A program made the position numbers and the translations under genes. Below, in pieces: positions 913 to 43,969 of a DNA stretch of 48,944 bases; position 1 is the first letter of the stretch, and the number at the start of each line of letters is the position of its first letter. A model generated the notes under the pieces. It was not told the DNA's origin. It was given only the letters and a program-made list of their open reading frames with translations, and searched no databases. Origin of the DNA: Microbotryomycetes sp. JL201 (taxonomy: Eukaryota; Basidiomycota; Microbotryomycetes); assembly GCA_033819885.1 (NCBI GenBank), contig JAQYUZ010000070.1:1-48944 (forward strand). The letters are read 5' to 3'.

Positions 913-3900
913 CTACTCCCATTTTCCTGGAGATTTCAGAGCTCGCCGACGACCTGCCACGCAAGCAGTCCCGGCCGTGTCTTTCACCAGCCCATTTCTA
1001 CACGTGAAGCCCGCATCAGACTTGCCGCAAGTCGCATTAGATGGACAAGGTTGACAGACTGGCGATAAATACATGTCAGCAGACAGCAGAGTGAATGCCT
1101 TGCTTGTACGGTCAACTGACCTCCATTCTTGAAGTAACCGCCGTTGTTGCAGTAGCAACCATCAGTACCGGGATTCAGCTCCGGAGATACGCATAGGAAT
1201 CCGTTTGAATTGGCCAGGCATGTCGAGTCGGCGGGACATTCGAGACAGTGATACCGGCCGATGGTACTGTCGTATCCGATGTAGCCGCCGTTCGGGCAAA
1301 CGCATTGGCCAGCCAGATCGCCTTGACCCTTGACAAGACCTTGATTCGGGTCGCACGTGAATCCATCATTCGACTTGTCGCAACCTGCGTTCCTCGGACA
1401 CTCCTTGCACTCTGTTCGAGATCACGGTTGGCTCAGAGCGAAACGAGAAACCATACGCAGCTCCAGCTCACCTCCGTTTTCAAAATAGCCTCCGTTGCTG
1501 CACCGACAAGATCCATCGCTGGCGTACAGGCCACCGTCCGCAGACGAACAAGTGAAGCCGCCCGCATCGGGACAAGTAGCATCTGCCGGGCATGGAAGAC
1601 ACTTGTATTGCCCACTCGAATTGTCGAGTCCAAAGTAGCCCCCATTCACGCAGACGCACTTGTCAGCCGCCGCACCTGTGCCTTTTGCGAGACCGTAATT
1701 AGGATCACATGTGAAACCTTGGTTCGAGTCGCGACACAATGCCCAGGGCGGGCACTGCTTGCAGACTGCGCAAGACATGATGACTGTCAGCGCGAGAAAA
1801 AACAGGCCGAAATCTATTTTTCTCACCTCCATCTTCAAAGTATCCACCGTTATCGCATCGACAGGCGTAACCAGTGGAGTGCAATTCCTTGTCCGCCGGA
1901 CAGGTGAAACCGCTCGAATCGGCGCAAGTGGCTTCGGCAGGGCAAGCGAGGCACGTGTACACCGCGGTCGCATAGTCGTCACCGAGGTAGCCCCCATTCG
2001 AGCAAACACATTTGCCAGCCGTCGCACCGGTGCCTACAGCGAGGCCCAGATCGGGCCTGCATGTGAAGCTATCGGAAGACTTGGTGCTGCAGTAGGCGTT
2101 CTTAGGACAGGTCTGGCACACTGTTGCAAAGCAGAGATTGTCAGTCGGCGTCACCTTCGATCACGTTAGATTACAGCAGACCTTGACCATCGAAATAACC
2201 ACCGTTGTTGCAATAGCATGCGTCGTCGCCAGCGGTCAGTCCTTTGCTCGACGGGCACATGAACCCGCTCGAGTCGGCGCATGTGGCATCAGCCGGGCAA
2301 GGAAGGCACATTTTCGCGCCAGTCGAGGGGTCGTTTCCGAGGTAGCCGCCATTTGAGCAGACGCATTTTCCAGCGTCTGTGCCAGTGCCTTTCGCAAGGC
2401 CTTTCGCGGAGTCGCAAGTGAATCCTTCGTTCGATTTGCCACAGATTGCATTGGTCGGGCACCCTTTACAAACTGTCGGAGAGCGGTGCTTCAGTTCGTG
2501 CTATCGGACATGATTGCTCAATGCTCTTAGCTGCCTTTACCTCCATCCTCGAAGTAGCCGCCATTGTTGCAGTAGCAACCGCCAGTACCGGGGTTCAGCT
2601 CCGGTGAGTTGCATGTGAACCCGTTCGAGTTGGCGGAGCATGTCGAGTCGGCCGGACAATCCAGGCAGCGATACCGGCCGATTGAATTGTCGAGTCCGAT
2701 GTAGCCGCCGTTCGGGCACACACATTCCCCGGCCAAGTCCCCTTGACCCTTGACGAGGCCTTGATTCGGGTCGCACGTGAATCCATCATTCGACTTGTTG
2801 CAGCCCGCGTTCCTCGGGCATTTCTTGCAAACTGTGCAAGAGAGCTGTGAGTCAAGCGTCAAAAGGAAGCATGAAAGACTCTGACTCACCTCCGCCATCG
2901 AAATAGCCTCCGTTGCTGCATCGACAGGCGCCCGCATTGGCAAATAGTAATCCATCTGACGACGAACAAATGAAGCCGCTCAAATCGGGGCAAGTGGCAT
3001 CAGGCGGGCATGCGATACATTTGTACAGTCCGATCGAATTGTCGAGTCCGTAGTAGCCGCCATTTGAGCACAGGCACGTGCCGGCAGCCGTGCCGGTGCC
3101 CTTCGCGAGGCCTTTTTCGGGATCGCAGGTGAAACCAGCTTCAAAGCTGGAGCATTTTGCACCGAGGGGACAAGCCTTGCAAGCTGTGATGCGGATGCGT
3201 GTCAGCATGGGAAGGAAAACGAAATCTGCTGCGCACTGACCTCCTGCTTCGAAATAACCTCCCTTGCTGCAGTAGCACTTGCCTCCGCGTGAGGACAGGC
3301 CCTGGCTCGAATCGCAAGAGACACAGGCGCCATCGAACAAGTAGAAGTTTTTCGTCACGTCGCACGATGTGATTTTGCCGTCGCTATCGCAAGAAGCAAC
3401 TCCAGCTGAGAGACAGCTGGTGCACACGCCATCCTTTTTGTATTCATTTGGGCCACAGTCCTTGATGCATGCTCCAGATTCCAAAGTGTAGCCGTTGCTG
3501 ACGTCGCATGAAGTCGCTGCGCCGTCAAGTGCGCTGCAGGTCAAGACGCCGTCCTTCGCGCAATTTGTGCAAACACCATCTGTGGGATCCATGCTTTGTC
3601 AACGCAGGGCTCATACCCGAGTTTGCGCACATGCACATTCCGACGAGATCTCACTCACTGTCCTTGAATTCATTGACATCGCAGCTTTGGACGCAGTTGC
3701 CGTTCTTGAGGGCGAATCCTTGAGACGTATCGCAGGCCGTTGCTTTTCCATCGGTACCACTGCACGAGACCGCTCCGCTGCTGAGGCATGAGACGCAGGT
3801 GCCATCTGAAAAGGGACGAGCGTCAATACAGAATGCAAGTCTCAATGGGGCCGTGCTTACTTGATTTGAATTCGTTTTCGCCGCAGGAGGTTGTGCAAGT

Positions 3901-5750
3901 GCCGTTCCTGAGGATGTAGCCTTTGGCCTCGTCGCAAGTCTTGGGTGCGCCGGTCGTGCTGTCGCAACTAGTCACACCAGTCGAAAGACAGCTGGTGCAG
4001 GTGCCGTCTGACAAAGGACAATCGTCAATACCCAATGTCAAGTCCATCATGGCCGTACTCACTTGATTTGACTTCGTTTTCACCGCAGGAGGTCGTGCAA
4101 GTGCCGTTCCTGAGGATGTAGCCTTTGGCCTCGTCGCAAGTCTTGGGTGCGCCCGTCGTGCTGTCGCAACTTGTCACACCAGTCGAAAGACAGCTGACAC
4201 ACGTGTTGTCTATCCGACCCCGTCAGGCTCCTGTCAGCTGACCAGAACGCGCGCTGGCTTCGATGGGTTTGCAACTCACTCGACTTGACCTCATTAGTAC
4301 CGCAGTTCTTCACGCAAGTGCCTTGCCTGAGCACGTAGCCTTGCGCAGTATTGCACGCCGTGGCTGACCCGTTCACCGAGCTACAAGCCGTGACGCCTGT
4401 TTTGATGCAGGATGTGCACACACCGTCTAGAGGTCACATATGTGCGTGTCAACGATGCTTCACCCGCCCCGCAATCGCTCTGGGCTCACTCTTGTTGTAG
4501 GTATTGAAGCCACAGGACTTGACGCAGGCGCCTTGTTGGAGCTTGTACCCTTTGGCAGAGTCACAAGCGGTCGCCTTGCCAGTCGAGCTGTCACAAGCCG
4601 TCACACCGGTCTTGAGGCAGCTCACGCATGCCGTGTCTGCACAGAACGGTTTCAGTTCGGGACAATTTCCGATCGTCGGACTTGGACTGACTCGTCTTGA
4701 CCTCGTTGGTTCCGCATTTCTTCACGCAAGTGCCTTGCCTGAGCACGTAGCCTAGCGCAGTATTGCAAGCCGTGGCCGACCCGGTCACCGTGCTGCACGC
4801 CGTGACTCCAGTTTTGATGCAGGACGTGCAAACACCGTCTAGAGGTGGCAAAATATGTGTATAAGCAATGCGCCACCGCACCATGCCATTGCTGTTTGCT
4901 CACTCTTGTTGTAGACATTGGCGCCACAGGATTTGACGCACGTGCCTTGACGGAGCCCATACCCTTTGAAGAAGTCACAAGCGGTCGCTTTGCCGCTCGA
5001 GCTGTCACATGCCGTCACACCGGTCTTGAGGCAGCTCACGCACGCCGTGTCTGCACAGAACGGTTTCAGCTCGGGACAATTTCCATCGTCGGACTTTGAC
5101 TGACTCGTCTTGACCTCGTTGGCACCACATTTCTTCACGCAGGTGCCTTTCCTGAGCAAATAGCCCTGCGCAGTTTTACATGCCGTAGCTGACCCATTGA
5201 CCGAGCTGCACGCCTTGACGCCTGTTTTGAGGCAGGACGTGCACACACCATCTGAAGGTGACCAAAAGATGAGTGAAGCGATCGCACAAATGTGTGCGCC
5301 ATCGTTCGTAACTGACTCTGGTTGTAAATGTTGACGCCACAAGACTTGACGCACGTGCCTTGTCGGAGCCCATACCCTTTGGAAAAGTTGCAGGCGGTCG
5401 CTTTGCCACTGACGCTGTCGCATGACGTCACACCGGTCTTTAAGCAGCTGCTGCACGTCGGTTCTATAAAGCAGTCGTTAGCTTCAGTGCCGATCTTGCC
5501 TGGTCAAGCCCAAATGTGAATCACTGAATGGAGACTCACTCGATGTTGTTCCAGTCTTGTAAGTTCCTGACGGGCATTTTGAGATGCATCTTCCGTTGTA
5601 GAGAAATCGGGGCTTTGCGCACGATGTTGTTTGGCGAATTTCGAGGCGCGGCGCCATGTGCTCAGCTTGGTCGGCCTTGACGGCGAGCGTCAGGAAGCAC
5701 CATAGGAAAACAGCCAGCAGCGAGCTGCCGCCTAGCATTGACCTGCGCAT
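913..5750 (-). CDS. Secreted cysteine-rich modular protein built of repeated symmetric exons
   Basis: Proposed exons, complement of 913..1058, 1121..1411, 1472..1765, 1827..2120, 2182..2472, 2541..2831, 2890..3183, 3241..3579, 3659..3805, 3861..4007, 4063..4209, 4280..4426, 4490..4636, 4692..4838, 4904..5050, 5105..5251, 5317..5463, 5540..5750; 1257 aa. Exon 1 encodes a signal peptide (LLAVFLWCFLTLAVKA) and a short Cys-containing head. Exons 2-10 are each exactly 147 nt and encode a 49-residue module with six cysteines, spaced CxxC-x7-C-x9-C-x12-C-x3-C. Exon 11 (339 nt) fuses this module type to the next. Exons 12-17 (291 or 294 nt) encode 97-98-residue modules with twelve cysteines, each two half-modules ending in CxCxNGGY. 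Exon 18 is a truncated half-module with a basic tail. All introns are phase 1. The pattern resembles furin-like or growth-factor-receptor cysteine-rich repeats. No C-terminal membrane anchor is visible, so secretion or wall association is inferred. The donor of exon 14 (2182 or 2188) is ambiguous. Function unknown. Confidence 0.85.
1121..3183 (-). repeat. Array of six 291-294-nt exon repeats (twelve-cysteine double module)
   Basis: Six consecutive exons (12-17) encode 97-98-residue modules. Each begins shortly after the splice site with a CxxCP motif and closes with a CxCxNGGYF(D/E)xGG motif. Within each exon the two halves repeat the same six-cysteine plan, so the exon is about 2 x 49 residues, close to the 49-residue unit of the upstream array. 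Introns between them are 57-69 nt and phase 1. Confidence 0.9.
3659..5463 (-). repeat. Array of nine 147-nt exon repeats (six-cysteine module)
   Basis: Nine consecutive exons, each 147 nt and in phase 1-1, are separated by introns of about 53-75 nt. Exons 2, 4 and 6 resemble each other (ending in NIYNQS, NVYNKS and similar), and exons 3, 5 and 7 form a second type (ending in NEVKTS or NEVKSS). Corresponding acceptors are 412-414 bp apart (5463/5050/4636 and 5251/4838/4426), so a two-exon, two-intron unit of about 413 bp was duplicated in tandem. Exons 8-10 instead repeat as single units of 202 bp (4209/4007/3805). Confidence 0.9.
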
Positions 5751-6670: not shown

Positions 6671-8539
6671 CTACGGCACCCAACCTGGTCCGAAACGTTC
6701 GGTGAAGAATAACCTCGTCCAAATCTTGTACACCGTGTTTGGGAAATGTACATTGTCGATCATGTTGTGCGGTCCGGTCGTCCTCGTCAGTGTGAAAATG
6801 TCGAGCACTCTGACGCCCAACCGTTTCGCGTAGCCCATAACGACTTGATTAGACATATTGATCTGAACGTTGTGTCTCATGACAGTGTCCTTGATGTATT
6901 TGATAGGGATGCGACTTGGCGCTGTCGCGCTCGTCAAGACGATGACGAGCGCATCCTTGAACGGTTGCAAGATCGGTGTGATGCGATCCATGATCTCGAC
7001 CCAGCCTTCGTTCGTCAACTGAGACGCGTGAGAGCCCATCGACACGTAAATACGTTCGGCCGGTTGGGTAAAGTTGACGAATTGAGTTGGCAGCGTCGAC
7101 GGCAGACTAGGATCGTTGTGCCACCGCAGGTCCCACGGGTCATCGTTGCGCTCATAAATATAATCGTTCAAGCTCTCGCCCAGCCACGTCTGAAGCCTGT
7201 CTGCTGTCGCGCCGACGTCTTCCTCGCCGAACCACCAATCCCAGGTCCAGGCGGTCGTGTTGTCCCAGCACAAGACGTGGAGTTTGCGGCCACTCTTGAC
7301 GCACTGTACTGCGCCCAACGCTTTGGGATAGTTCCACACGAAAAAGAAGCGCATGTTGCTATCGCCGAGGAATCGCCACCAGCGCAGAGGTGTGCCAGCC
7401 GGTGTCGCGACGGCCTCGTCGACCTGAAGCAATCTGCAGGGTTTGCCGTCTGGTCCGATCGGTGTGAACGAGCCCGTCTCGTTGTTGAACGAGCCCGGTA
7501 AATGATCCAGCCGCGGGCACAGCGCGGTCGTCGTCGACACGGTGGGCAGTGGCGTAAGCTCGTTCGTGTACGTGGGCATGTTGCCGTTGTCGTCGAGAAT
7601 TGTTGCGCCGACCCAGCTGTAACCCTTGTCAAGCAGTGACGAGTAGTCGCAAGCGGGGGCATTACAAGGCATGCCATTGGCGGGGTAATCCGCCAGTTCG
7701 AGCACGGCTTCGACCGATACTTGGCCGTCTGCCGCCTTGCTGATGGGTGCGACGAGTTGGTAGTGGTACATGCCTGGTGCTATCTGTGCCGGGTCTTCAA
7801 GCAGTCTGATTGACGAGTCTTGGAACAAGAGCCTGACGGTGAACCACGCGTCGCTGAGCTGGTCGCAATTGCTGTATTGCTGCCAGTCTTTTGGGCGGAT
7901 GACGAGGTCTGTGCGGCGAGAGCGGGTGCGACAGCAGAGCGTGGATGAGCATGAGTGTTATCTGAGCGCATGGAAGTAGTGCGCACCTGGTGATTGGACC
8001 TGAACCGACCAGAACGACGGTTGTTTTGCGAGGTTGACGAGGCTCGTCTGATTGCAGCCCACGCCGGCTTTTGAAGTGCCTACCGCCGTGATTCCCGTAC
8101 CTGCGGGTGAACCAGTCGACGGTGTGCCACCCGCACTGTCGCTGTTGCCCGTGCTTGCGCTGGCGCTCGCATGTTTGCGCCTGCCGAGGCCGACGCCCAG
8201 TCCGACCGCGAGCGCAATCACGAGTGCGACGACGACGAGCTTGGCCAGGCGTCTGTCTCTCGGCGTCTTGAGCATTGAAAATGGCCAATGCGTGGGTGCT
8301 GTCGCCGCTGTGGCTGCCGTGGCCGTCGCTGTCCTGCGCGAAGTGCCCGCGAGCTTCTCGTCGTCGTCCTCGTCTCCGTCTTCGCCGTCACTGCTCAGGC
8401 TCGTCGACATTGGGGGTGCCATCAACCTCGATGCGTGGGCGGGTGCGGGCTGCTCGCTGTCGTGGTCGTTGTCGGCGATGAATGCGCTCGTCGAGCGCTG
8501 GCCTTGCTCGCCCAACATGGTCGCGAACCGGCCACCCAT
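6671..8539 (-). CDS. Type II membrane SGNH/PC-esterase family protein 1 (probable glycan O-acetyltransferase or esterase)
   Basis: Exons complement(6671..7908, 7987..8539); 596 aa. The intron (GTGCGC...CACAG) is phase 1, and an in-frame TGA directly precedes the ATG. An acidic, Ser/Ala/Thr-rich cytosolic tail of about 98 residues is followed by one membrane segment (about 99-120, LVVVALVIALAVGLGVGL), giving a type II topology with the catalytic part in the lumen. The lumenal domain carries the GDS block in RFLGDSNMR (near residue 366) and a C-terminal DxxH block (DNVHF, near residue 572), the catalytic signature of the PC-esterase/TBL/NXPE/Cas1-type clan, whose members move acetyl groups onto or off sugars. 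Conserved Cys pairs (GMPCNAPAC, GKPC) suggest disulfides. It is a clear paralog of the gene at 34557-36674. Transferase versus esterase activity and the acceptor are not determined by sequence. Confidence 0.82.
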
Positions 8540-8900: not shown

Positions 8901-10168
8901 TCAATCAGAAAACGCGACAGCATACACATAGCACGACAAGACAGCAGCGAGCACACATGTGACCATGCCGGGCATGCTCATCTTGACGGCCGCAGGCAAG
9001 CGCACGGCGACGTGCATCGGGCACCTCGGACCTGGCACCAAGCTCGACATGCCAGGCTTGAGATGTTTGTGCAGGCTGTCAAGACTCGTATCTGCAGACG
9101 GCACCATGTCGCTAAAGCTCTCAAAGATCTTCATGGACAGACACATCAACGCCACACGCGTTGATCATCAGCTCGCGTTCGGCCAATGTCCGTCAAGCAC
9201 GCCCGGGAAACTCACGCCCATATTGAGCTTGAACGCGTACAAGGCCTCGTCCACAACTCGCTGTCTCTGCTCGATTGTCATGTCCCGTCCGGCCGCGTCC
9301 AAGCCAGCCCGAAAGCGTGCTTTGACTTGCTTGAGCTCGTGCGCCGTCGCTCGTCGCGGCAGACCACCGCCATTGTCGCTTCCGGGAATGAAAAACTCGT
9401 AGAATGCCGATCCTTCGCCCGACTCTGGCAATCCGTATGCTTTGCGCAGAGACTTTGCGATCGCTTGGCCACCCGACAAGTCACCGACTGTGTGGTGACG
9501 ACGAGTGAGCATCAGACGTGATCAGGCATGGGATCGGGCCATAGAAACGGCTTACGGTACCTGACGTATGCGTGCGCCAGCAGCAACAGCGTCTTGTCCT
9601 CGTCGCAGTCATCCACGTCATTCGATCGTTTGCCACTGGCGCCTGCCAGCTGTCGCAACCTGTCTTCGTACTCGAGTGCTACGAAAGGCTTGTTTTCGAG
9701 AGTGTGTCGTGCTACTGCGCTGTCCGTGTGCCAGTTCCTCGTGCCTGCGAACCAGCTGCAATCGTCGTCGAGCGAGTCTGCGCGCGCCAACAATTTTGCA
9801 TCAAACACGCGCGCGAGATGTTGATTCGTCGAGTGGTGCTCAAGTGCGGCGTCCAAGTGTGTGTAGACGCCGTGCAGTAGGACAAGGTAGCGCAAGTAGA
9901 CGTCGCGCGGCAGCAAACCCTTGACGAGCGAGTGCACAACTGCCGGCAGCATCACGTCAGAGTGCGCCAGCGCCGTCGCGTCTCTCAGTAGCTGTGCCAG
10001 CCCAATCGGAGGCTCAGTCGCGGCTCCTTCTGCCACACGAGACTGGTCGGCGACTGGCAGCGGTGGCGTGGCGGGCGGCGTCGGCGGTGGTCGAGCCCCT
10101 TGATGTTTGCTCAATGCCGCCATAGCGGGCGACGGCGGCACACTTGCAACCTGATGCAGTCGAGACAT
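8901..10168 (-). CDS. HMX1: Heme oxygenase with C-terminal membrane anchor
   Basis: Exons complement(8901..9128, 9216..9487, 9556..10168); 370 aa. Heme oxygenase cleaves heme to biliverdin, CO and ferrous iron. The diagnostic signature AHAYVRYLGDLSGGQ is rebuilt exactly across intron 1, which supports that splice. The N-terminal helix LLRDATALAHSDVM carries the likely proximal heme-ligand histidine. Intron 2 joins FKLNM-G to IFESF, matching the family's AFxLNxxLFEEL helix; its acceptor is AAG rather than CAG. The last exon ends in a hydrophobic segment (about VTCVLAAVLSCYVYAVAF), a C-terminal ER-type anchor like that of yeast Hmx1 and animal HO-1. The start is the ATG giving MSRLHQ; MAALSKHQ is a possible later start. 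The Pro/Ala-rich N-terminal extension is non-conserved. It shares a 444-bp divergent promoter with DDB1. Confidence 0.92.
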
Positions 10169-10612
10169 TGCCGAGAATGGCCCAAGGCAAGACAACGGCA
10201 GCTGCAGCCGCCTCGGTCGGGCAAAAAGGCAGGCGGCCTGTGCGCGGTTTGCGCGAGCGAGCGAGACGAGCACCGATCAAAAGGCGAGAGCGATTTGCGC
10301 CAGCGCTTGGCACGAAGAGTGTCCTGATTTAAGATACGATACTATTCTCTCGATCGAGCTGACGCCCTCGTATCCGTTGTATAAAAACCGCTCACGTGAC
10401 GCTAACTGAATTTTGATCGACAGCAGATGCACCCTGGCAATACAACGTTGAGTTTGGCAAACGTCATTGTAAAACAGGGTGAGCAGGCATACCTCCGCCT
10501 AAAGCCTCCTGTTTTCGACAGCATGTGGAGCGCCGAGTGATTTGACCTGGCCTCCGCTGGTCGATCGTCACAGGAGCTCGGACGGCGCGCTCGATCCTGC
10601 CGCAAGCGCAAA
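10169..10612. promoter_or_regulatory. Divergent promoter region, heme oxygenase / DDB1
   Basis: This 444-bp gap lies between the heme oxygenase start (reading left) and the DDB1 start (reading right). On the + strand it contains TATAAAA at about 10380-10386 and a CACGTG E-box palindrome at 10393-10398, only 7 bp further on. CACGTG is a binding site of bHLH factors in fungi. Both elements lie more than 200 bp upstream of the DDB1 ATG, so their use by DDB1, by heme oxygenase or by neither is undecided. Confidence 0.35.
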
Positions 10613-13600
10613 ATGCTTTACGTGGCTTCTGCCCAGCATGCGAGCGTGCAGCTAGGCGCTGTCGCGTGTGACTTTGTGGCGCCAGGCGAGACGGCACTCG
10701 TCGTAAAGTCAGTCGATCACGTCTCGGTCAACGAGCTGGCGCCCAAGCTGAATTACAATCTCAACTTGCTGCAGCAAGCTAACCCGGCTAGAAGTGTACT
10801 CGGTTGATGCGAGCAGCGCCGCTGTCGAGCTCGCGTTCGAGGTGCCCGTCCCGGCCACGATCGCCGCCTTTGCACCTTTCAAACTCGACGTCAGTCCATC
10901 GAAGCCCTTTTCGAATGTTGAGACGGCTCCCATTCAGAACTGCTCACGCTCTTGTTGTGGTCCGTCCCACAGGCGCATGGCCCGAGCTCGCTCCTCGTGC
11001 TCACAACATCCATGCAACTGTTTGCAATCGAGTACTCGGGCAATGCTGCGACGTCTCACGTCAATACCCTTTCCTCGATCTCAATTCACGAACAATTCGG
11101 GAGGCCGGCAGAGTGTCAGACGATCGTCGTCGACCCGAACCAGTCGTGCATCGTCGTACACGCCTATTGCGGACTCGCGAGGGTTGTCCCACTGCTGTAC
11201 ACTCATACCGGCACGTCAACATCCTCAAGGACTCGCAGAGGGAGCAAACGGATGTCGGACGCCGCGATTGCTCATGCTCAGGCAGCCATTCAGGTTGACC
11301 TGTCGATGAGCTTCGACGTGAGGCTGCCAGAGCTCAATGTGACAAGTTTGGTCATCATGTCGGGAACGAACGCGTTGTCGTCAATCAACGCGGAGACTTC
11401 GCCCACAGAAAAGGACGACGCCACACAATCACCACCGATGCCAGTCCTCGCGCTCGTGCACCTCAGTCACTCGGGATCGCGCGTGCTCGTCACGCACACT
11501 CTCGACCTTGGCGCCAGAGAACTTGTAGACGGTCCGATCAGCTCGACAGATTTGGCCGACCCAGGTAGCGAGACGGTGATTCCCGTCGACTGCGCACAAG
11601 GCGAGAGCGGTGTGCTCGTAGTCGGAGAAGAGACGGTCACTTGGATACCAGTCACATCCCCTCAAACTGAAAAGAAGGGCAAGAGGAGAGCGAGCAGTAG
11701 TTCAACTTCGGGCCCAACTAGAATCATGTGTCGGCTGCCGGTCGGCATGATCCAGGCGTGAGTGCAGTCAAAGCCCACCAGACATCCGAGTGTGAGCTGA
11801 ACTCTCGCGTTATGGGCAGCTGGACGGCCGCTTCTAGCGACAAGTTTTTGCTCGGCGACATTTACGGCAAGCTGTTGCTGCTCACCTTGACGAGATCGCC
11901 GTCGACAGGCAGAGCTATCGATCTGACTGCATCTGATATTGGTGATGTGTGTAGGACATTCAGGTCCTGACCAGCGAGCACAATGCTGACTCCCGAGCTC
12001 TTGCAGACTTCGTCACCAACCGCGCTCGTTCTACTCTCGCCGGAAATCTTATATCTTGCATCACGCTTTGGCGATTCTCAACTCATTCGGATCCCAGCAG
12101 GGACTTTGTCGTCCGCCGACCAAACTTCTGCTATGGATACTGGAGAAGGCTTGCAGTTGCTCGACAGTTTCACTAGTCTCGCACCCATTTTGGATTGCTG
12201 CATCGTGCGACCGACGTCGGGCGGACCAGTGAGCGGACCGGAAAAACTTGTTTGCGTCCATCTCTGATCCAATACCTCTACGTCAGAGCCGCGTCGTGAC
12301 TTGCTCGGGCGCTTACAAAGGTGGCAGCCTGCGCGTCATCTCGCAAGGCATGGGTGTAAGCATGAGCATTGCATTGCTGCCGTCTTTGTTGCCACGTCTG
12401 ACTCCGAGGTTCGCAGGTCACCGAGTTGGCGAGCCTCGACGTTGAGGGTGTTCAGCGATTGTGGACAGTGGCAGATCCGGCTTCGTACGTATCAGAGCTC
12501 AGAGCCCCGAGAGCACCCTGACGTAGACTCACATGTTCCTACCAGCTCATCAATCCTGCTCGTCGTCGGCTTGTTGAACGAGACGCGCTTCATTAAACTT
12601 GTCACGTCGGAAACTGGCGACATTGACGACATTGACGAATTCGAGTCAGAATTATTGCTGACGGACGAAGCGACATTGCATGCCGGTCTCGTTGGTGGAG
12701 TCATCGTCCAAGTTTGCAACACCAAAGTGCTGTTCAGTAAGCTTGATGGTACAAATGGCGGATCTTGGGTGCCACCCGCTGGACGCGTGACGCACGCCGC
12801 CACTGCCGGCGATTATTTGCTTTTGGCCCTCGAAGGCGGTCAATTACAATTGTTCAATGCTGCCGAGCAAGCATTGGCTCCAGTCTCGTGAGCGTCCGGT
12901 CGTTCGAAGGGCACGAGCGTTCGTTGACGGTGTCTGTCTCAGCTCACATGCTCTCGCCAACGAAGCTTCGAGCATCAGTCTCGCCCAGTACGCTGGTCAA
13001 ACGGTAGCACTCGCTGCGACGTGGTCTACGAACGAGGTCTCCGTTTTGTCGGTGCCGAAGCTTGAGGTTATCAGTTCGTTCAAACCTCCGACGACGTATC
13101 CGATCCGGTCGCTCGCGGCTGCGACGTACGGTGACGACATGACTGTGCTATTTGTCGGCTTTGGTGATGGCGCGCTTGCGACATATTCGATGGCGCAAGG
13201 AATTGTTGATGCCGCAACAGAGCGCATCACGCCTCTCGGGACCAAACCCGTCGAGTTAAACACCTTTGTCAACAGAGGCAAAGCAAGCGTTGTGGCCGTG
13301 TCGGATCGACCGACTGTCATTTCAAGGTCGAACGACAGGCTCGTATACTCGAACGTTAACGCGCAAGCAAGTCTCGTTGCGAGAGTGCAGGTTGTACGAA
13401 CGTGCTGACGATGTTTGTCATTTCAATGACAGAACGTCACTGCGCTAGCGTCAATGGTCAAAGTCATGCCTTCATGCGTTGCCATCTCGGACCCGACGAC
13501 TGTACGCATTGCACGACTTGACGATATAAGAAGAATGGACGTTCGTACAATCCCCCTGGACGAAGAGGAACCGCGTCGGATTGCATACAGCGCATCATTG

Positions 13601-14970
13601 GGGGTGTACGCCGTTTTGTGCCTCAAGCGAGACGTTGATCGGTCGAGTGGCCGGCAGACGAGTGACGAGAGTGTGCACTTTTTCAGCGAGGACTTTGAGC
13701 GTCAGTCACCACCTGCTTGCCCGTCCACCTGCTTTCGCCAATTTGTGTAAGAACGATCAGACATGTTCCTGACCGTGTCCTGCTTTCCCCAGGCATTGGC
13801 TCGTTCAAGTTTGAAACCGATGAAGGCGGGCAGAGCATCACGAGCCTGTCGGTCCCAAGCGAAGATGAGGATGTATTTGTGATCGGCACGGTCGAGGCGC
13901 ACCCTGATGAGCCAGAGCCGACGAAAGGACGGCTGCGGTTGTTTCGTCGACAAGCAAGTTCCGGCGCATTCGAGCTGTCGAGCGAGGCGGTTTTGCCCGG
14001 CTGCCCTTACGCTGTGGCCGCTGTCGGAACGAACAGCCATGTCGCGGTTGCCGTCAACTCACAGGTACTGGTGTATGCCGTTGATGTGCGATCGGGCGCT
14101 CTCACGCAGGAGGCGAGCTGGGGCGGAGCATTCGTCGCTTTCAACTTGGCTGTTGCACAACGCCACCCCAATCGTCTGATTGTCGGTGATGCATTGCGCT
14201 CAGTGACGCTGCTCGACTTTGTAGCATCTGGACCATCTGGACCGAGCCTGAAGGAAGTGACATGCGACTATGACGCGCATTACATGTCTGCCGTCGCGGC
14301 AGTATCTGACAACGAGTATATTGGTGCCGAGACGGATTTGAACTTGTTTACGCTACTTCACGACGCCGTTGGATCAAGCCAAGGTGATGACGCTTTGACA
14401 CCGATGGGCCGGTTCCATTTGGGTCAGATGGTGTCCAAATTTCAAACTGGTCAGTCGGAGGGGATCATTTATAGTGATGGATGCTGATTGATATCCACGT
14501 TGACGCAGGCGCTTTGGTTCAGAGTGGCACAGGGGCAACAATTGAACCTGCTGCGATCATACCAAAGCTCGTGTTTGCGACGTCCGCAGGCATGGTTGGT
14601 GTTGTTGTCGACCTCGATGCCGAGACGTCCAAGCTGATGTCGGCGCTCGAGCGCAACATGCGACAGGTTGTGCCGAGCGTTGGCGATTTGGATCAGGAAG
14701 CGTGAGTGGCTACCGACCCGTTATGTTACACAAGGCTGACTTGACTCGTACCAACGACTTGTAAAACCTAGTTGGCGCGCGTTCAAGAGTGACCGTCGCA
14801 CTGTGGCGAGCGCGGGTTTCGTTGACGGCGACTTTGTACAACAATTTGTCGAGCTCTCACCAGAAGATATGGACAAGGTCGTGCAGGGCGCCGGGAAGGA
14901 ACATCAAAGGCTGGACGTGAGTACGCATGAGGTACTCAAGCTTGTCGAGGAGTTGTCTCGATTGCACTAG
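10613..14970 (+). CDS. DDB1: DNA damage-binding protein 1 (CUL4 ubiquitin ligase adaptor)
   Basis: Exons 10613..10707, 10775..10889, 10973..11757, 11820..11946, 12007..12228, 12287..12355, 12417..12484, 12546..12887, 12943..13390, 13433..13700, 13793..14449, 14509..14701, 14772..14970; 1195 aa, close to the usual 1140. DDB1 links CUL4-RING ligases to WD40 substrate receptors in DNA repair, replication and chromatin control. Family landmarks appear in order: NKLTRLEVYSVD (residues 32-43), HEQFGRPAE and VVDPNQSC in propeller A, LASRFGDSQL, VTCSGAYKGGSLRV, SDRPTVISRSNDRLVYSNVN in propeller B, EPTKGRLRLF and VGDALRSVTLLDF in propeller C, and the C-terminal VLKLVEELSRLH (family KVVEELTRIH). A basic Ser-rich insert (near EKKGKRRASSSS) is not family-typical. 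Intron 9 (13391-13432, 42 nt, donor GTTGTA) is the least certain splice. Confidence 0.95.
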
Positions 14971-15171: not shown

Positions 15172-17438
15172 ATGCAGTCCGACGGCGACAGTGCACGTGG
15201 CGGTGCGAGCTCGAGCAGTCATACTCAAAGGCCGCACTCGCCGCCGACTGCGACAGCCACTGATGCGCAGCAGCAGCACCTCTCAAAGCAGCAACGGCGG
15301 CCTCCAAAGGCTCGTGCGTGCGATCAGTGCAACGCGCGGCGCATCCGGTGTGTCGGTGACGGCGTGCCGTGCCAGTCGTGCGTAAAGTCGCAGCTGGACT
15401 GCACGTTTGAGAAGCAGCCACGCAAGAAGGGACCGCGCGGAGTCATCATGAGCAAGCTGAGACAGCAGTCTTCCTCGTCCACGAGCCAGCCAGCCTCAAA
15501 GACGGACGCAGGAGCCGGCTTACACCACCCAGCCGCCCCACAAGATCACGTGCACCCGTCATCGGCAATGCATTTGGACGTGTCGCCTCCGGGAGCAACC
15601 CTGTACAGCTTTGGAGCAACAAACTCGGCAGCAGGAGCACCGACAGTGACAACCACAACATCGACTCACTCTGGCGCCTCGGGCCACAGCCCGCCGTTCG
15701 CCACCCTGCACTCGTCATTGCCGCTGCACGCCAGTCACTTGCTCGCGTCGACATCACCCTCCACGGTCGACCAACAACATCGCCACCCGCAAGGGCCATC
15801 GCCGACAGACCACCTCGGCTTTGACCATCCGCTCGCGCCACCAAACGGCCACAACAATGACTCTCACGGACTCAGTCAAGACAACACCAACGTCAGGCTA
15901 GATGTCACCGATTTTTTCCAACTCAATTCCTACCTGGTCAGTTCAGATCTTCGTGTCCGCACGTGACGGAAGCTGACGCGACCTGTCCAGAACCCGACAC
16001 CGTCTGGCCCGACGCCGCCGGCGCACAACCCGTCTCCAAACAGCACAGGCGGGGAATCATTGTATCACTCGAGCTTGAGCAACTACTTTATGACGTCGGT
16101 GGACATGACGAATCAATTGGGCGCCGCTGGACTGCTTGCCCCGCCACCCCCTTCGAGCAGACATCCCGGGCTGACTTGGATTGCGACGATCGTCAAACTC
16201 ATCCTCGAACCACAAATTGATGTTTTCTTCGCCCGGCTTCACCTCATTCTGCCCATGATCCCACGGAGCTATATCCAAGCTGGCCTCGACACGGATCGCC
16301 ACTTGACAGACCCGCCGTTCGCAGCACTCGTGCTCGCAATTGCTTCGTTCGCGCTTGTAGGCCCGGTATCGGTTGCAGACAGGCGCAAAGCGACCGAGAA
16401 CCAAGAGCTCGCGACGGCGCTCCAGCACGAATGCTTGCGCGTCAAAGGCATGTCTTTGAGCTTTGAGCCAACATTGGACACGATCTGGACCTTGTTCTTC
16501 TTGTTCGGATCAGCTTTCAACCTGGAGCAGCATCAAGAGGCGTGGTGGCGGTTAAGGGAGGCACTGACGCTCGCCGAGACGCTAGAGTTGCACCGCCAAG
16601 AAGCGTACGACCAGTTGAGCATGGACGAACGATCACGACGAATCCGCACCCTTTGGGTGCTCATGGTGACGGAAAGGGCGTATGCGATGCAAAAGAATCA
16701 CTCGATCGTGTTCAATCGGGCGTCTGGCGTCGATTGGGCCTTGTCAGACATTCCTTGGTTGTCTGCTTACAGCGGCGAGATGACGCCAATGCTTGGGTTG
16801 CGCTGTCTCGCGCACTTGTACTCGTTCATCAATGAGGACATCGTGTCGTGCTGGAACGGCAAGTGTCTCGAAGGCGTGTGTGAGACGATGGACGCGCCCA
16901 AAGTTGTAACGCTGCAACGGGGGTTGGACGGTTGGGCGAAAGGCATCAGCGAGACATTGATGATGCAGTGAGTCCGGAGGGATTCGTACTGTCCTGTGGG
17001 TATGCCTTGAACTGACCCCTGCGTGCTCGTAGACTGACCGAACCAAACCGTGCCGACTTGCTCGTGTCTCAACAATGGTTGCGCAACCGGATATGGCAAT
17101 TGACGGTTTCGCACTGCCTCGCCGACCAAGACTCACCCGAGCTCGAACTTCGATTAAGCTACTCGCTCCTGATCGCGCGAGAAACGGTGCGCGTTTGTCG
17201 GTCGTTTACGCAAGATGCGCTCGAAGCCAATGGAGTCGGCGTCGCGCACAAGCTGCACGACATTGTATTATCCGTGATATACTCAAACCGGACACTTGGT
17301 GACGCGGCCCCTGATGCATGGATGGGTGGCACTCCACCTGTCGTGCTTGGCCAGCACTTGCGCAACGAGCTGACGCAGCTGCTTCGGGATTTCCGAGGCG
17401 GCAAGCATCCGTTCCTGCAGTCGGTGCTGGTGGCGTGA
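15172..17438 (+). CDS. Zn2Cys6 fungal transcription factor
   Basis: Exons 15172..15936, 15991..16967, 17033..17438; 715 aa. Residues about 50-76 form a Zn(II)2Cys6 binuclear cluster (ACDQCNARRIRC...PCQSC...DC, spacing CX2CX6CX6CX2CX6C) followed by a basic stretch (KQPRKKGPRG), the fungal-specific DNA-binding domain that contacts CGG triplets. A long Ser/His/Pro-rich linker leads to a fungal_trans-type middle homology region in exon 2, with typical blocks such as FFARLHLILPMIP, LFFLFGSAFNLEQHQEAWWRLREAL and RTLWVLMVTERAYAM. Targets are unknown; the middle region recalls sugar-responsive regulators but that is weak. The 3' end is uncertain: GTGAGT at 17435 followed by an acceptor at 17515 would replace the stop and end at TGA 17616-17618, overlapping the GT90 start codon. 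It lies 176 bp upstream of the GT90 gene in the same direction. Confidence 0.85.
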
Positions 17439-17614: not shown

Positions 17615-19666
17615 ATGACGCGCCTCGTTGGCGCGCTGTGCGGCAGTGCGTCCAAAGTGCGTCAACTTGTTGTCGCTTGTGTCGTTGTCGTGGCCGTTGT
17701 CATGTGCGTGACGTCGCTGTTTGGCGTGCCAGTGTGGTGGCCAGTGCGCGTCCATCCGGTCGCTCAACTCTTGCGCGACGCCGAGCAGCAACACGACAGG
17801 TTTCGACAAGCTCAGCCCACGACGCTCGACGACGCGCGCAGGGTGTACGCGGCCAAGCGCGCGCGCTCACCGCCGCCAGGCTACGACGAATGGTTCGCAG
17901 CCGCCAAACGACTGGACGCGTGCGTCATTGACGGTTACGACGACATGTACGATACGTTGCAACCGTTCTGGGCGCTCTCGCCACGTGACATTGGCCGCCG
18001 GATGGAGCAACTGGCCGCCGTCAGAGGCATGGGCCGAGTGCGAGTCAGAAGTGGCAAAGTCTGGCGACACGACGAGATCAACAGCGACAGACCTGGCTCG
18101 GCAGGAGAAGATTCGGACGCGCGCAGGGCCATGCAGAGCATGCTCGAAGCCGTCGTCAGTCAATTGCAAGCAGACCTACCAGACTGTTAGTTTTACGCGA
18201 TCGCGATCCGCCTCGGTCACGCGTCCAGCTGGCTGTGGAAAGGCTGACTGCCGCTTCGCGCGCACAGTCGACATGTTTGTCAATGGGTACGACGAACCGC
18301 GCGTGTCTCTGTCGCACAAAGACAAGGCACAGTTGCTCAAGCTCGCGAGCGATGGGCAAGGTTTGTAATGTCAAGCCTGAAACTAATAGAACGAGTCTGA
18401 TTCCCTTTGCTTCAGTCCGCGAGCAGGTCGACGAACCGCTCGTGCTGAGAACATTCGGAGGCGAGCCGTCTCTGGCCGACAAGGTCCGCCTCACGTGTCC
18501 TTCCGACTCTCTCACTTGTCCAACAGCCTGGCAAGATTTGCGTCTCGCATGCGATCCTTCTTCACTGTCACGGCAAAGCAAGCTGTCTGAATTGCCTGGC
18601 AGCAACCCTGTCGTCACTCACGCGCACGACTGGCAGTTTACAACCCCGCTCGGTCACTTTCTCGTCTCGCCGAGACGGGAACAAGACACTTGGTGTGACC
18701 AGCCCGACTTGCAAGACCTACACGCTGCGTACATTCATCCCTTGTCCTTTACGTACACGCGACAACCGTATCCCGTCTTTAGTAATTCGCGCATCGGTGG
18801 TTTCAACGACATTCTCATTCCGGCGTGGTGGTACTGGTTTGACGTGACAGAGTACAGAGACTCGGAAGATCCACAATGGTCGACCAAGACAAACAAGGTC
18901 AGTCTGGCACGTGCAAGCCTTCGTTGAGCGCGAGTTTGACAAGGATTTCGGACAGTTGTTTTGGCGAGGCAGCAATACGGGAGGCTACTCCATCTCTCTC
19001 GCATACAAAGGTTGGCTACGGTCCCGTGCCGTTTCGATGCTCAACGTGCCATCGACATGGGATTCTCACGAGCAAGTCGTGCTCGCAGACGATCAAGGTC
19101 GAGCGATCGAGACAAGCGTGCCTGCGCGTCCGTTGTTGTCTTCGCATGCCGATGTTGCGTTTGTTGCGCCAGACCAAGGCGACGAACCGTCGTTGGCGTC
19201 TCAACGTGCCGAACCGACGTTCAGGTTTGCCGACAGAGTGCCTTTCAACGACAACTATAAAACGAAAGCGGTGCTCGACATGGACGGCACGGCGTACTCT
19301 GGTCGGTTCCTCGCCTTGATGCGCAGTAGGACGGCCGTGTTCAAGGCAGGCTTGTTCAGAGAGGCCATGAGTCACTCGCTCGTGCCTTGGTACCATTATG
19401 TGCCCGTGTCTGTCCGATTGACTGAACTACCTTCGTTGCTGGGTTACTTTTTCGGCGTCGATTCTGTACAGTCGTTCATCAGAGCGTCAGGCAAAGGTCA
19501 AATCACGAGCAAACTCGGTCGCGCACGACCTCACGATGACCAGCTCAAGTTGATCGGTGAGAGAGGGCGACGATGGGCGAGCGAGTGTGGACGGAGGGAA
19601 GACATGATGTTGTACACGTACTTGTTGGCACTAGAGTGGGCTCGCATTTTGCACCGCGACGAATGA
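17615..19666 (+). CDS. GT90 (CAP10-like) glycosyltransferase
   Basis: Exons 17615..18185, 18268..18360, 18416..18897, 18956..19666; 618 aa. An in-frame ATG at 17543 would add 24 residues; I prefer 17615 because the basic N-terminus then directly precedes the membrane anchor (LVVACVVVVAVVMCVTSLFGV), a Golgi type II layout. Family 90 landmarks are all present: PPPGYDEWF and DDMYDTLQPFW; DLPDFDMFVNGYDEPR rebuilt across intron 1; TWCDQPDLQDLHAAYIHP; GFNDILIPAWWYW; LFWRGSNTGG starting exactly at exon 4; LDMDGTAYSGRF; and VPWYHYVPV. The family includes Cryptococcus CAP10 and the beta-1,2-xylosyltransferase CXT1 as well as protein O-xylosyl or glucosyltransferases, so the donor sugar may be UDP-xylose but is not fixed by sequence. 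Context with GDP-mannose and acetyl-CoA transporters supports a role in wall or capsule-type glycan synthesis. Confidence 0.93.
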
Positions 19667-30518: not shown

Positions 30519-31392
30519 TTAGTTGCTCTCCTCCTTTTCCTTTTCCCTTTGTTCCTTTTCCTGCAAACGGGAGGCAGTCAAATCTACATGTGCACATGAC
30601 GGCGTGCAAGGACACGAAGGAACTGACGGCGCGGTGGGTGCGGACGGACGCGGCTGCGGCCTCTGCAACGTTCTTTGGCTTGCCAATCTGCTTCGTCTTC
30701 ATGACGTGCGAGTCTTCCTTGACGTCATCTTTTGGCGTGCTGTTTTCGTCAGCCGTGGCCTCTTCTGCCTGCTTTTGAGCGTTGTCGTCCTCGTCCTCGG
30801 TGTTCTCATTCTTGTCTTGCTGCTCCTGCGGCTGCTCCGTGTTGTCGGCGTCGGCGTCGTCAGACTTGGCGTCTGTCTCGTCAGACGACACGTCAGATCC
30901 GGGTGTGGTTGCTTGTGGTTCAGTCTGTTCAGGCTTGTGTGCGACCGGTGCCGGTTTGGCGTGGCTCGTGTGGTGCGCGTGCGCGTGGTCCTTGTTTGGC
31001 GGCGAGGTGAGGTAGCTGTCGTATTAAGCAAGTTTCAGGCGAGTCAGCTTTCTGCTCGTGCAGCCGATACCGTCTGGTCACGAGCATGTGCGGGTGCGAT
31101 GACGACACGCGAGATTGGTTTGTGACTGACAAGACGAGAGGGCCGAATACGGCGAGCGAGGCGGCCTACATCCAGACACAAAGAAAAGAGGAGAGCAAGG
31201 CAAAACGTCAGCACGTGTGCTGTGCGGTCGATAGGCGTCGGGTGCGAGCCAGTCCGGCGACACCCGCGCTCGTTCGATTTCACTCACTGCCCATGCAAAG
31301 TCGCTTTTGGGCTTGGCAGGCGCGATCGTTGTCGCATATGTGCGCCTGGCGGCGGTTGCGCGAGCGGCTCGGGCAGCACTGCGAGCGAACAT
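30519..31392 (-). CDS. Acidic single-pass protein, probably mitochondrial inner membrane
   Basis: Exons complement(30519..30560, 30628..31015, 31131..31165, 31288..31392); 189 aa. The N-terminus (MFARSAARAARATAARRTYATT) is Arg/Ala-rich without acidic residues, a typical mitochondrial presequence with a likely cleavage near RRTYAT. A short hydrophobic segment made from the end of exon 1, exon 2 and the start of exon 3 (FAWAAASLAVFGPLVLFYLTS) is a membrane anchor. The rest is a His-rich stretch, then a long Asp/Glu-rich disordered region, and a charged C-terminus (EKEQREKEKEESN). No enzymatic domain is recognised. The 35-nt exon 2 is very small but needed to build the membrane segment. Convergent with TBCD and divergent from GT92. 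Localisation is inferred from composition only. Confidence 0.72.
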
Positions 31393-31659
31393 TTCGATGA
31401 GAGAGGGGGAAAAAGCCGCAGCGCAGCGCGCGGGCGAGTCGAAAGCGCCGTCACCGACATGGTCAGCCTACCAAGCGAGTATCATGCACATGCTTGCTGG
31501 GCCGATTTCCATTGATTCCCGTACCCACATTCAATTTGCCTGAAATTGTGATAGCAAGTGTGTATTTTATTTTGACGGAGCTGTGCTTGCCCGCCTGCCT
31601 GCCTGGCCTGGCCTGGCTCTGGCTCTGGCTTGGCTTTGCGCTCAGGCCGCACGCGCGCA
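31393..31659. promoter_or_regulatory. Divergent promoter region, acidic mitochondrial protein / GT92
   Basis: The 267-bp gap contains, just upstream of the GT92 start, a short imperfect repeat of CCTG, CCTGG and CTCTGG units at about 31593-31635, pyrimidine-rich on the + strand. Tracts like this are common in fungal promoters and 5' leaders; no specific factor site is identified. Confidence 0.3.
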
Positions 31660-39128: not shown

Positions 39129-39403
39129 CACACGTGCGAGCACCACCAAGTCGTCGAACGGTCCAGAGGCGTGGGCGCGATGGCGAGAGAGCGGCGAGCG
39201 GCCTAAATTCGCGTTGAGTTTTAAATCAGTCAGTACAAACGAAATCGTCATTTCGAAATAATACGAGTTTAGGGTAAGAACACTGACCCGACTCGCTGTC
39301 GCCCATCGTTCTACGCTAGTCTTGACTGCAAACTTCCGAGCCCGAGGCTGGCAATCGACTTGCGTGTGGACGCTGCAGTTTAACAGACACGCCGAGCGCG
39401 GTC
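39129..39403. promoter_or_regulatory. Divergent promoter region, GDP-mannose transporter / UFD2
   Basis: A 275-bp gap between two divergent start codons must serve both genes. I see no clear TATA box or defined factor site in it. Confidence 0.4.
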
Positions 39404-42400: not shown

Positions 42401-43969
42401 CATCAAAGTGCGCGCTGAATCTCTCAAAATCAAAACCTTTTCCTGCTTTTTTTGCTGATCTTCAAACGTGCTCGATACAGATACGCGCCCCAATCAATCG
42501 CCGACAGTTCCTTGGATGAGCTGTTGACGTTCATGCTTGTGTTCCTGTCAACACCCTACATGAAGAATCCGTATCTGAAAGGGCAATTTGTTGAGGTAAG
42601 AAGCAAATGAATGTACTTGCAGTTTGTCTTCTCCTCTGACAGCTACTTGCTTAGATCATGTACTACCTGTGTCAACCACTTCCTCGGTATCCCAGAGGTT
42701 GCTTGGGCGAAGTTCTCAATGTTCACCCGATGGCGCTCGACTACCTCATGCCGTGCTTGGTACACGCTTTCGTTGGTATGCTTGTCAGGTTTGATTTAGC
42801 CAGGTCTTGATTGCTGAGGCACGCTTTTGCGCAGAGATTGAAGTGACTGGCTCACACACCCAGTTCTACGACAAGTTCAACATCCGCTACTACATCACCC
42901 AGCTCTTCAAAGCGGTGTGGTCAAATCCGGCTCACCGGGATGCGCTTCGCAGAGAGAGCCAGTACGCACATGCGAACGCTGTGTCAACAAGGCTTTCAAC
43001 TGACCTTCCCCCATAGAAACCTCGATCGCTACGTGCGCTTTGCCAATCTGCTGATGAACGACACAACCTACTTGCTCGATGATGCCTTGATGCACCTTGG
43101 CAAGATTGTAGAGCTGCAACGCCAGATGGACGATCAAGCTGCTTGGCAGGCTTTGCCCGTCAATGAACGGCAAGAAAAGGAAAAACTGCTCCGACAGTAC
43201 GAGGGTTCTGCGCGCAGTGACCTTGACTTTGGTGTCGAGAGCCTCCGACTTCTCAAACGCTTTGCCGCCGAGACGACGCAGCCATTCCTGGCCGCAGAGA
43301 TCGTTGACCGTCTTGCTGCCATGCTCGACATGAACTTGAGCCTACTGGCAGGACCTAAATGTCAAGATTTGAAGGTCCGAGAGCCAGAGAAGTATCGATT
43401 CCGGCCGAAGGAGCTTCTGTCAGACTTGCTCGACATTTTCCTGCAATTGGCCCCGCACAGTCAGTTCCAGAATGCCGTGGCAAAGGACGGACGCAGCTAC
43501 TCCAAGGCATTGTTTGAGCGCGCAAAGAGGATCGCCCTCAAAACGGCAATCAAAACGCCGGCAGAGCTGCAAGGTTTGGATCTTCTTGTGAATTGCGTAG
43601 AGGCCATTCGGTTGTCCCAAGAGGAGGATGATGCATCAGGTGAAGTGCCAGACGAGTACCTGGGTAAGTTGGACGTCTCACCAAAACGTGTGCTTGCTGA
43701 CTCTCTGAGCTTTACCAGACCCCTTAACGTACGAGATCATGCGTGATCCGGTCATCCTCCCTGCATCAAAGGCTATTGTGGACCGCTCAACCATCAAGCA
43801 GCACTTCCTCTCTGATCCAACTGATCCCTTCAATCGCGCACCGCTTGCGTGGGAATCCATTACTGATGCAGGGGAGCTCAAGGTCCAGATAGAAGCTTTT
43901 CTTGCTGATCGAAAGGCTCGCAAGACTGCCGCTGCTGATGCTAGTGCTGGATCAATGCAGGTTGACTGA
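39404..43969 (+). CDS. UFD2: Ubiquitin chain elongation factor E4 (U-box)
   Basis: Exons 39404..39439, 39535..39960, 40019..40097, 40174..40379, 40441..40562, 40637..41069, 41142..41243, 41304..41519, 41593..41719, 41783..41937, 41999..42043, 42102..42259, 42315..42407, 42481..42595, 42655..42775, 42835..42961, 43017..43663, 43719..43969; 1152 aa. UFD2 extends short ubiquitin chains on substrates and works with Cdc48/p97. The N-terminus has IRLRRLARLG and YDQWQNAALERIL; the core has SYTGLVLLDPTMFPQ, ALGPFLRVSMFPE, IAQNYFPEP, KIDPLFYKHS, FISDIFFLTATFLH, LSTPYMKNPYLKGQFVE, VRFANLLMNDTTYLLDD; the U-box (DPLTYEIMRDPVILPAS) fills the last exon from about residue 1070. At the exon 8/9 junction the family alignment (FSK then IDKIDP) suggests a GC donor at 41520, though a GT donor 12 nt later also keeps frame. 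The exon 9 donor (41719) has an alternative 9 nt upstream. Confidence 0.95.

What the first reader, a model, noticed from the sequence alone, without database searches (positions are those of the whole stretch)
913..5750. Exon-repeat cysteine-rich secreted protein in which all 16 internal exons are symmetric (phase 1-1)
Internal exon lengths are 9 x 147, 339, and 6 x 291 or 294 nt, all divisible by three and all bounded by phase-1 introns. Any internal exon or set of exons can therefore be skipped, duplicated or lost without a frameshift. In animals this is the classic arrangement for module shuffling; in a fungus with 50-70-nt introns such a long symmetric array is unusual. It could generate many isoforms of a secreted or wall-exposed protein, by splicing or by allelic copy-number change. 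The layout is read from the sequence; the variation is inference.
Basis: partly seen in the sequence, partly recalled or inferred. Interest (0 to 1): 0.85.

Follow-up and report, generated by a model that had tools for sequence, protein, structure and literature searches.

The report
Fungal gene built from duplicated exons
A fungal gene for a large, probably secreted, cysteine-rich protein has grown by repeatedly copying whole exons together with their introns, so every internal exon can be added or lost without breaking the reading frame; the layout is real and uncommon, but the idea that it makes many spliced forms is unsupported.

Summary
On the minus strand (5750-913) lies a gene of 18 predicted exons and 17 predicted introns (54-79 nt), all phase 1. 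Internal exons are 9x147, 339, 3x291 and 3x294 nt. The protein has 1257 residues, 149 Cys, one N-terminal hydrophobic stretch, ten A modules and twelve B half-modules.

The symmetry follows from tandem duplication of exon-plus-intron units. Alternate exons match (2/4/6 at 76-85%, 3/5/7 at 83-89%, 8/9 at 92%); three intron pairs match too (3/5 at 94%). Exons 12-13 pair with 16-17. Close copies are under purifying selection (dN/dS 0.12-0.38). Other gene models in the window have mixed phases.

No convincing family or sequence match was found in collections that hold few eukaryotes. The predicted A fold weakly resembles furin-like repeats. Diversity by exon skipping is not supported: skipping is usually a minor event in fungi (PMC5034255, PMC2219887). 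Allelic copy-number change is plausible, with a basidiomycete precedent (Cryptococcus CNN00420, PMC2395259), but was not testable. Verdict: real; new variant of a known kind.

The parts
913..5750 (-). Predicted gene, 18 exons, 17 phase-1 introns, 1257-aa cysteine-rich protein
5540..5750 (-). Exon 1 (211 nt): ATG, hydrophobic signal-peptide-like N-terminus, start of the Cys-rich region
5317..5463 (-). Exon 2, 147 nt, A module (2/4/6 class)
5105..5251 (-). Exon 3, 147 nt, A module (3/5/7 class)
5051..5104 (-). Intron 3, 54 nt, in frame and stop-free, 94% identical to intron 5 (4637-4691)
4904..5050 (-). Exon 4, 147 nt, A module (2/4/6 class)
4692..4838 (-). Exon 5, 147 nt, A module (3/5/7 class)
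4637..4691 (-). Intron 5, 55 nt, near-copy of intron 3 with a one-base indel
4490..4636 (-). Exon 6, 147 nt, A module (2/4/6 class)
4280..4426 (-). Exon 7, 147 nt, A module (3/5/7 class)
4063..4209 (-). Exon 8, 147 nt, A module; with its intron a tandem copy of exon 9 + intron (173 of 202 positions identical)
3861..4007 (-). Exon 9, 147 nt, A module, 92% identical to exon 8
3659..3805 (-). Exon 10, 147 nt, divergent A module
3241..3579 (-). Exon 11, 339 nt: one A module plus a transitional module ending in a B-type CxCxxGGY motif, with no intron between
2890..3183 (-). Exon 12, 294 nt, B double module (pairs with exon 16)
2541..2831 (-). Exon 13, 291 nt, B double module (83% identical to exon 17)
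2182..2472 (-). Exon 14, 291 nt, B double module
1827..2120 (-). Exon 15, 294 nt, B double module
1472..1765 (-). Exon 16, 294 nt, B double module
1121..1411 (-). Exon 17, 291 nt, B double module
913..1058 (-). Exon 18, 146 nt with stop: truncated first half of a B module; no hydrophobic C-terminal segment

Best explanation
This is an intact fungal gene for a large, probably secreted, disulfide-rich repeat protein that grew by tandem duplication of exon-plus-intron units bounded by phase-1 introns. Shown from sequence: exons 2-7 are three copies of a two-exon unit, exons 8 and 9 are a single-unit copy, and exons 12-13 correspond to 16-17. Each B exon is an internal double of a roughly 50-residue module. 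Each duplication that begins and ends in phase-1 introns keeps the frame, so the all-symmetric layout is a product of the growth process. Purifying selection has since kept the cysteine framework. Inferred: the protein is exported and forms an extended chain of small disulfide-knotted modules, with furin-like hairpin architecture in the A part, acting as a multivalent spacer or adhesive at the cell wall or in the extracellular matrix. Array length can change by unequal crossing-over or slippage between similar units, so it may vary among isolates. Normally all exons would be spliced in.
For: Gene structure. Alternating exon similarity (2/4/6 at 76-85%, 3/5/7 at 83-89%, 8/9 at 92%, 52-59% between classes) and three matching intron pairs of 36 compared in the A part (3/5 94%, 4/6 67%, 8/9 67%). 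Self-alignment blocks 4274-5047/4686-5460 (82%) and 1119-1718/2539-3136 (77%). Trees grouping 2/4/6, 3/5/7, 8/9, 13/17 and 12/16 (support 0.93-1.00). High-identity tract crossing intron 3 (187 columns, 13 mismatches, permutation p 0.0005). Selection: dN/dS 0.12-0.38 in the 7 within-class A pairs and 0.14 for 13/17; codon-position differences 35:26:85. Protein features. Fold models with mean pLDDT 80 and 75. A model closest to R-spondin Fu1-Fu2, which holds ranks 1-7 (best E 0.026, probability 0.85, TM 0.37-0.39, rmsd 7.6). Precedent for growth by intron-containing repeats: PMC2395259 (passages read).
Against: No transcript data. No orthologue or second isolate, so the present rate of change is unknown. 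Other within-class introns do not stand out: 7 against 3 or 5 is 24-29%, 2 against 4 is 47%, 2 against 6 is 30%; in the B block 12/16 is 55% and 13/17 is 37%, while unrelated intron pairs reach 47-55%. So those introns are diverged or were replaced. Fold matches are all E > 0.001, the pTM values are 0.63 (B) and 0.46 (A), and four of the five B models scored only 46-62. A and B profiles do not match each other (hhalign probability 0.3%), so one common ancestor for A and B is not shown. Extracellular location rests on one hydrophobic stretch. The intron sits two codons further from the first Cys in A than in B.
Confidence: 0.75

Rival explanations
1. The symmetric array is kept by selection because exons are skipped in regulated combinations to make many isoforms.
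For: All 16 internal exons are frame-neutral. Some donors look weak by eye, such as GTCTGC at intron 14 and GTAAAG at intron 13 (counted as; listed). Skipping does occur in fungi: 1,527 coding-region events in a splice-junction analysis of S. commune (PMC5034255) and numerous examples noted for C. neoformans (PMC2219887).
Against: Duplication alone explains the symmetry. Fungi are thought to use intron definition (PMC2219887, passages). Skipping was 1% of the called coding events in S. commune and 12 of 193 events in U. maydis.
Confidence: 0.07
2. An allelic copy-number switch: isolates differ in module number, and this variation is adaptive, as for intragenic repeats of yeast surface proteins.
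For: Similar neighbouring units; high-identity tract crossing an intron; Cryptococcus strains differ in the number of intron-containing repeats in CNN00420 (PMC2395259).
Against: No second isolate. Synonymous divergence is 0.21-0.59 even within the A classes and above 1.2 or saturated between them, so no unit is a very recent copy. Adaptive value is untested.
Confidence: 0.3
3. Intron retention rather than exon skipping diversifies the protein: introns 3 (54 nt) and 11 (57 nt) are in frame and stop-free.
For: Two of 17 introns can be retained in frame; intron 3 and its paralogue intron 5 are 94% identical although exons 3 and 5 have dS 0.55.
Against: Seven of 17 introns lack an in-frame stop against 6.9 expected from shuffles, so there is no enrichment. 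Intron 5, the near-copy, is 55 nt and would shift the frame.
Confidence: 0.07
4. True module shuffling: furin-like or EGF-like cassettes taken from other genes or from an animal donor.
For: Phase 1-1 modules and weak structural similarity to animal Fu, TNFR and EGF domains.
Against: No furin-like, TNFR or EGF family reached its cut-off in Pfam; no PDB sequence below E 0.64; no convincing copy elsewhere in the window (best outside hit E 0.081); similarity among copies shows internal duplication.
Confidence: 0.05

Closest known systems
Cryptococcus neoformans CNN00420, intron gain by repeat expansion (PMC2395259)
   Same: Tandem repeats that carry a whole short intron inside a basidiomycete gene; near-identical introns within one gene; growth by slippage, crossing-over or conversion
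   Different: There the unit is about 107 nt with exon ends plus an intron, the gene has six introns, and strain polymorphism was resequenced. Here 17 introns, exons equal to protein modules, a Cys-rich product, and no population data
Animal extracellular proteins with phase 1-1 module exons (general knowledge; phase 1-1 excess in metazoa per PMC6547436, passages)
   Same: Cys-rich modules each encoded by a symmetric 1-1 exon; duplication keeps the frame
   Different: No shuffling between genes shown; no named animal domain; fungal short introns
Furin-like repeats (R-spondin Fu1-Fu2, receptor Cys-rich domains)
   Same: Predicted A fold is a ladder of short strands; best PDB neighbours are RSPO Fu1-Fu2
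   Different: E 0.026 only; no sequence match; Cys spacing CxxC-x7-C-x9-C-x12-C-x3-C
Fungal surface proteins with intragenic tandem repeats (yeast FLO; recalled, and cited inside PMC2395259)
   Same: Repeat array in a probable surface or secreted protein that can change length
   Different: Each repeat here is split off by its own intron; Cys-rich; no hydrophobic C-terminal tail found

Membership tests
Intron-containing tandem repeat expansion gene (CNN00420 type) | Repeat unit includes a complete intron | tested here: met
   Paralogous introns 3/5 94%, 4/6 67%, 8/9 67%; blocks spanning introns. Other intron pairs do not stand out
Intron-containing tandem repeat expansion gene (CNN00420 type) | Copy number differs between strains | not testable with these tools
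   No genome or second isolate held
Phase 1-1 shuffled modular protein | All module exons bounded by phase-1 introns | tested here: met
Phase 1-1 shuffled modular protein | Same module present in otherwise unrelated genes | tested here: inconclusive
   Best hit in the rest of the window E 0.081; rest of genome not held
Furin-like / growth-factor-receptor Cys-rich family | Sequence match to a family model | tested here: not met
   Pfam: whole protein at E up to 1, and 9 exons or modules at E up to 10, gave no such family; the program's filters drop most matches above E 0.1
Furin-like / growth-factor-receptor Cys-rich family | Same fold and disulfide pairing | tested here: inconclusive
   RSPO Fu1-Fu2 tops the PDB list for the A model at E 0.026; disulfides not examined
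EGF-like family (for B modules) | Match to an EGF model | tested here: not met
   EGF_2 only at E 0.19, 12.5 bits against cut-off 22.1, in 1 of the 5 B exons scanned (of 6)
Secreted protein | N-terminal signal peptide, no other membrane segment | tested here: inconclusive
   Hydropathy fits: windows above the cut-off start only at residues 4-8; no dedicated signal-peptide predictor was run

The most novel reading that the evidence does not exclude
A fungal surface protein whose exon-per-module architecture works as a frame-safe length dial: unequal exchange between exon-intron units changes the number of disulfide modules among isolates without ever breaking the frame, giving fungi an intron-buffered counterpart of animal exon duplication, built from a previously unclassified Cys-rich module.
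Probability: 0.25. Interest if true: 0.65.

Novelty: new variant of a known kind. Interest (0 to 1): 0.42.

Why it matters
It is a clear example of a fungal gene growing by whole exon-intron duplication on a fixed intron phase, a route usually discussed for animals. It also adds two Cys-rich module types that no family model searched here covers. If isolates differ in module number, it would give a tractable system for asking whether introns make repeat arrays safer to expand and contract.

Tried and rejected
Rejected: assembly artefact or pseudogene. The frame is open throughout, the 17 chosen splice pairs are GT-AG, and differences between copies are concentrated at third codon positions.

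Rejected: treating 0.264^17 = 1.5e-10 as a probability for the phase pattern. The introns are copies of one another, so they are not independent.

Led nowhere: relatives in viral contigs (26 and 40 pattern matches, none confirmed), in GTDB genomes (65 and 20, none confirmed) and, for one B exon, in plasmids; PDB sequence searches (the only hit was E 0.64); NCBIfam (two matches to exon 11, E 0.035 and 0.11, far below their cut-offs) and PHROGs (none), each for 4 pieces. In the viral fold library (158 matches, 50 listed, none at E 0.001 or below) many listed rows are adenovirus fibre proteins, which I take for chance likeness of beta-repeats; fibre shafts also appear in the PDB list at E 0.83-0.88; a giant-virus ephrin-receptor-like protein is at E 0.057. 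These collections hold few eukaryotes, so the misses say little about fungi. Profile comparison of A with B modules gave no match. A PDB search with another window ORF, meant to hint at the species, found nothing.

Dropped rows: 8 of 36 A pairs had saturated dS. The pairs 13/14 and 15/16 there were compared without alignment gaps and are not used; 12/14 was skipped for unequal length. In one search the second comparison (exons 8/9) aligned a stretch with its own overlap and is void; one search replaces it. In one search I used 8 of 23 gene models, leaving out this gene, models overlapping on the other strand, retrotransposon pieces and 37310-41416. In two overlaps I kept the lower-scoring strand: 15172-17438 because of its Zn(2)-Cys(6) match, and 30596-34284 because of its long open frame. 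The models are unverified and some may be fused genes.

Papers: PMC2395259, PMC5034255, PMC2219887, PMC6547436 and PMC8654403 were seen as passages only; other listed papers were seen in search listings with abstract starts only. Searches bearing on fungal tandem or symmetric exon arrays were made; some searches bore on the domain and on splicing. Only the listed rows were seen (20 of 367, 20 of 190), and among these I noticed no fungal gene of this sort except that of PMC2395259. This is an open-licence library, so absence is weak evidence.
Full report
What is there. The minus strand of 913-5750 carries a gene with 18 predicted exons (bookkeeping). The 16 internal exons measure 147 nt (nine of them), 339 nt, 294 nt (three) and 291 nt (three). 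Every intron is phase 1, has GT-AG ends and is 54-79 nt long. One intron (number 3, 54 nt) is in frame and free of stops, so automatic models run through it. Its near-identical partner, intron 5, has 55 nt, which supports both being introns.

Is it more than chance. The nine 147-nt exons align as proteins without a gap, while the introns after them have lengths of 54, 55, 63, 65, 70 and 79 nt. Between near copies (six pairs) the differences at codon positions 1, 2 and 3 are 35, 26 and 85 of 342 sites each. Within-class A pairs have dN/dS of 0.12-0.38 (7 of 7 pairs) and the pair 13/17 has 0.14. So the frame and the boundaries are very likely real and selected. As a local yardstick I used 8 of the 23 gene models: 106 introns, phases 0/1/2 = 42/28/36, longest phase-1 run 3. 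Read from the output, none of the other 14 models outside this gene has a longer phase-1 run either. The models are unverified, I chose the 8 after seeing them, and the finder was trained in part on this gene.

How it arose. The copies show their history. Exons 2, 4 and 6 form one class (76-85% identical), 3, 5 and 7 another (83-89%), and 8 and 9 a pair (92%); between classes identity is 52-59%. The array 2-7 is thus three copies of a two-exon unit of about 413 bp. Some introns were visibly copied too: 3/5 are 94% identical, 4/6 67%, 8/9 67%. The rest do not stand out: intron 2 against 4 is 47% and against 6 is 30%; intron 7 against 3 and 5 is 24-29%; unrelated pairs reach similar values. In the B part, 12-13 correspond to 16-17 (77% over 600 bp; trees), though their introns are only 55% and 37% alike. 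Each B exon is itself a double: its two halves share CxxCPx4C...FxC...CxCxNGGY. A permutation test marks a 187-column tract of high identity that crosses intron 3 (p 0.0005). Since an intron should diverge faster than an exon, this points to later exchange between units. The same test also flags a tract of 58 columns inside exon 13/17 (p 0.001), which selection alone could explain.

Why all phases are equal. If a duplication starts and ends in introns of the same phase, the frame survives. Once a first unit had phase-1 borders, every further copy has them as well. The symmetry needs no selection for skipping. The figure 0.264^17 = 1.5e-10 would apply only to independent introns, which these are not.

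What the protein is. It has 1257 residues, 149 of them Cys (11.9%), one hydrophobic N-terminal stretch, no other hydrophobic window above the cut-off, and 11 N-glycosylation-type sequons. A modules have the spacing CxxC-x7-C-x9-C-x12-C-x3-C in ten of ten copies; twelve B half-modules follow a second pattern. No Pfam family was found for the whole protein at E up to 1, nor a convincing one for nine separate pieces at E up to 10 (best DUF5874 and MSC at E 0.018, below their curated cut-offs). AlphaFold2 on alignments of the gene's own copies gave moderate models: exon 13 with mean pLDDT 80 and pTM 0.63 (the other four models 46-62) and exon 11 with mean pLDDT 75 and pTM 0.46 (five models 68-75). 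Foldseek places the A model nearest to R-spondin Fu1-Fu2 (ranks 1-7, best E 0.026, probability 0.85, rmsd 7.6) and the B model near EGF, TNFR and R-spondin at E 0.16 or worse. I read this as 'works like a furin-like hairpin ladder', not as membership.

What it probably does. Inference: an exported chain of about two dozen small disulfide modules, acting as a multivalent spacer or adhesive in the wall or matrix. Shown: only the sequence features above.

Frame-neutral exons permit skipping but do not show it. In S. commune skipping was 1% of the coding-region splicing events called, although a splice-junction analysis in the same paper counts 1,527 such events in coding regions (PMC5034255, passages). 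In U. maydis it was 12 of 193 events, with fungi thought to use intron definition; the same paper notes numerous skipping examples in C. neoformans (PMC2219887, passages). Retention is the commoner event, but only introns 3 and 11 could be retained in frame, and stop-free introns are not enriched (7 against 6.9 expected). Copy-number change among isolates is the better half of the idea: in Cryptococcus, strains differ in the number of intron-containing repeats of CNN00420 (PMC2395259, passages). That paper is the nearest precedent I found and makes the present case a more extreme variant rather than a new kind. Against very recent change here, synonymous divergence is 0.21-0.59 even between the closest A copies.

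Limits. No genome is held for the window, and the searchable collections are prokaryotic, viral, plasmid or PDB, so fungal relatives, expression and variation could not be examined. The host is a fungus judging by its Zn(2)-Cys(6) protein; that it is a basidiomycete is a guess from the dense short introns.

Noticed in passing
window 44408-48906: Pieces of a Ty3-type retrotransposon: reverse transcriptase on the + strand (44408-44938) and integrase with chromodomain on the - strand (46903-48174), so perhaps two insertions or a rearranged one.
   Followed up: no
window 45673-45800: A 57-bp direct repeat, 96% identical, starts 71 bp apart, between the retrotransposon pieces.
   Followed up: no
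window 5051-5104 and 4637-4691: Two paralogous introns are 94% identical although exons 3 and 5 beside them have synonymous divergence of about 0.55; recent conversion or constraint on the intron.
   Followed up: partly
window 6671-7828 (-) and 34557-36674 (-): By eye, the two predicted proteins share motifs (RFLGDSN, and VHF near the C-terminus) and could be paralogous; the second has a sub-threshold GDSL-lipase match (E 0.024).
   Followed up: no
window 9512-10273 (-): Heme oxygenase domain (Pfam E 1.4e-13) in a model that the simple gene finder seems to have fused to the neighbouring gene.
   Followed up: no
window 12857-14487 (+), 15172-15966 (+), 18911-19666 (+), 42940-43746 (+): RSE1/DDB1/CPSF1-type protein, Zn(2)-Cys(6) regulator, glycosyltransferase family 90 and Ufd2 core: an ordinary fungal chromosome segment.
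   Followed up: no
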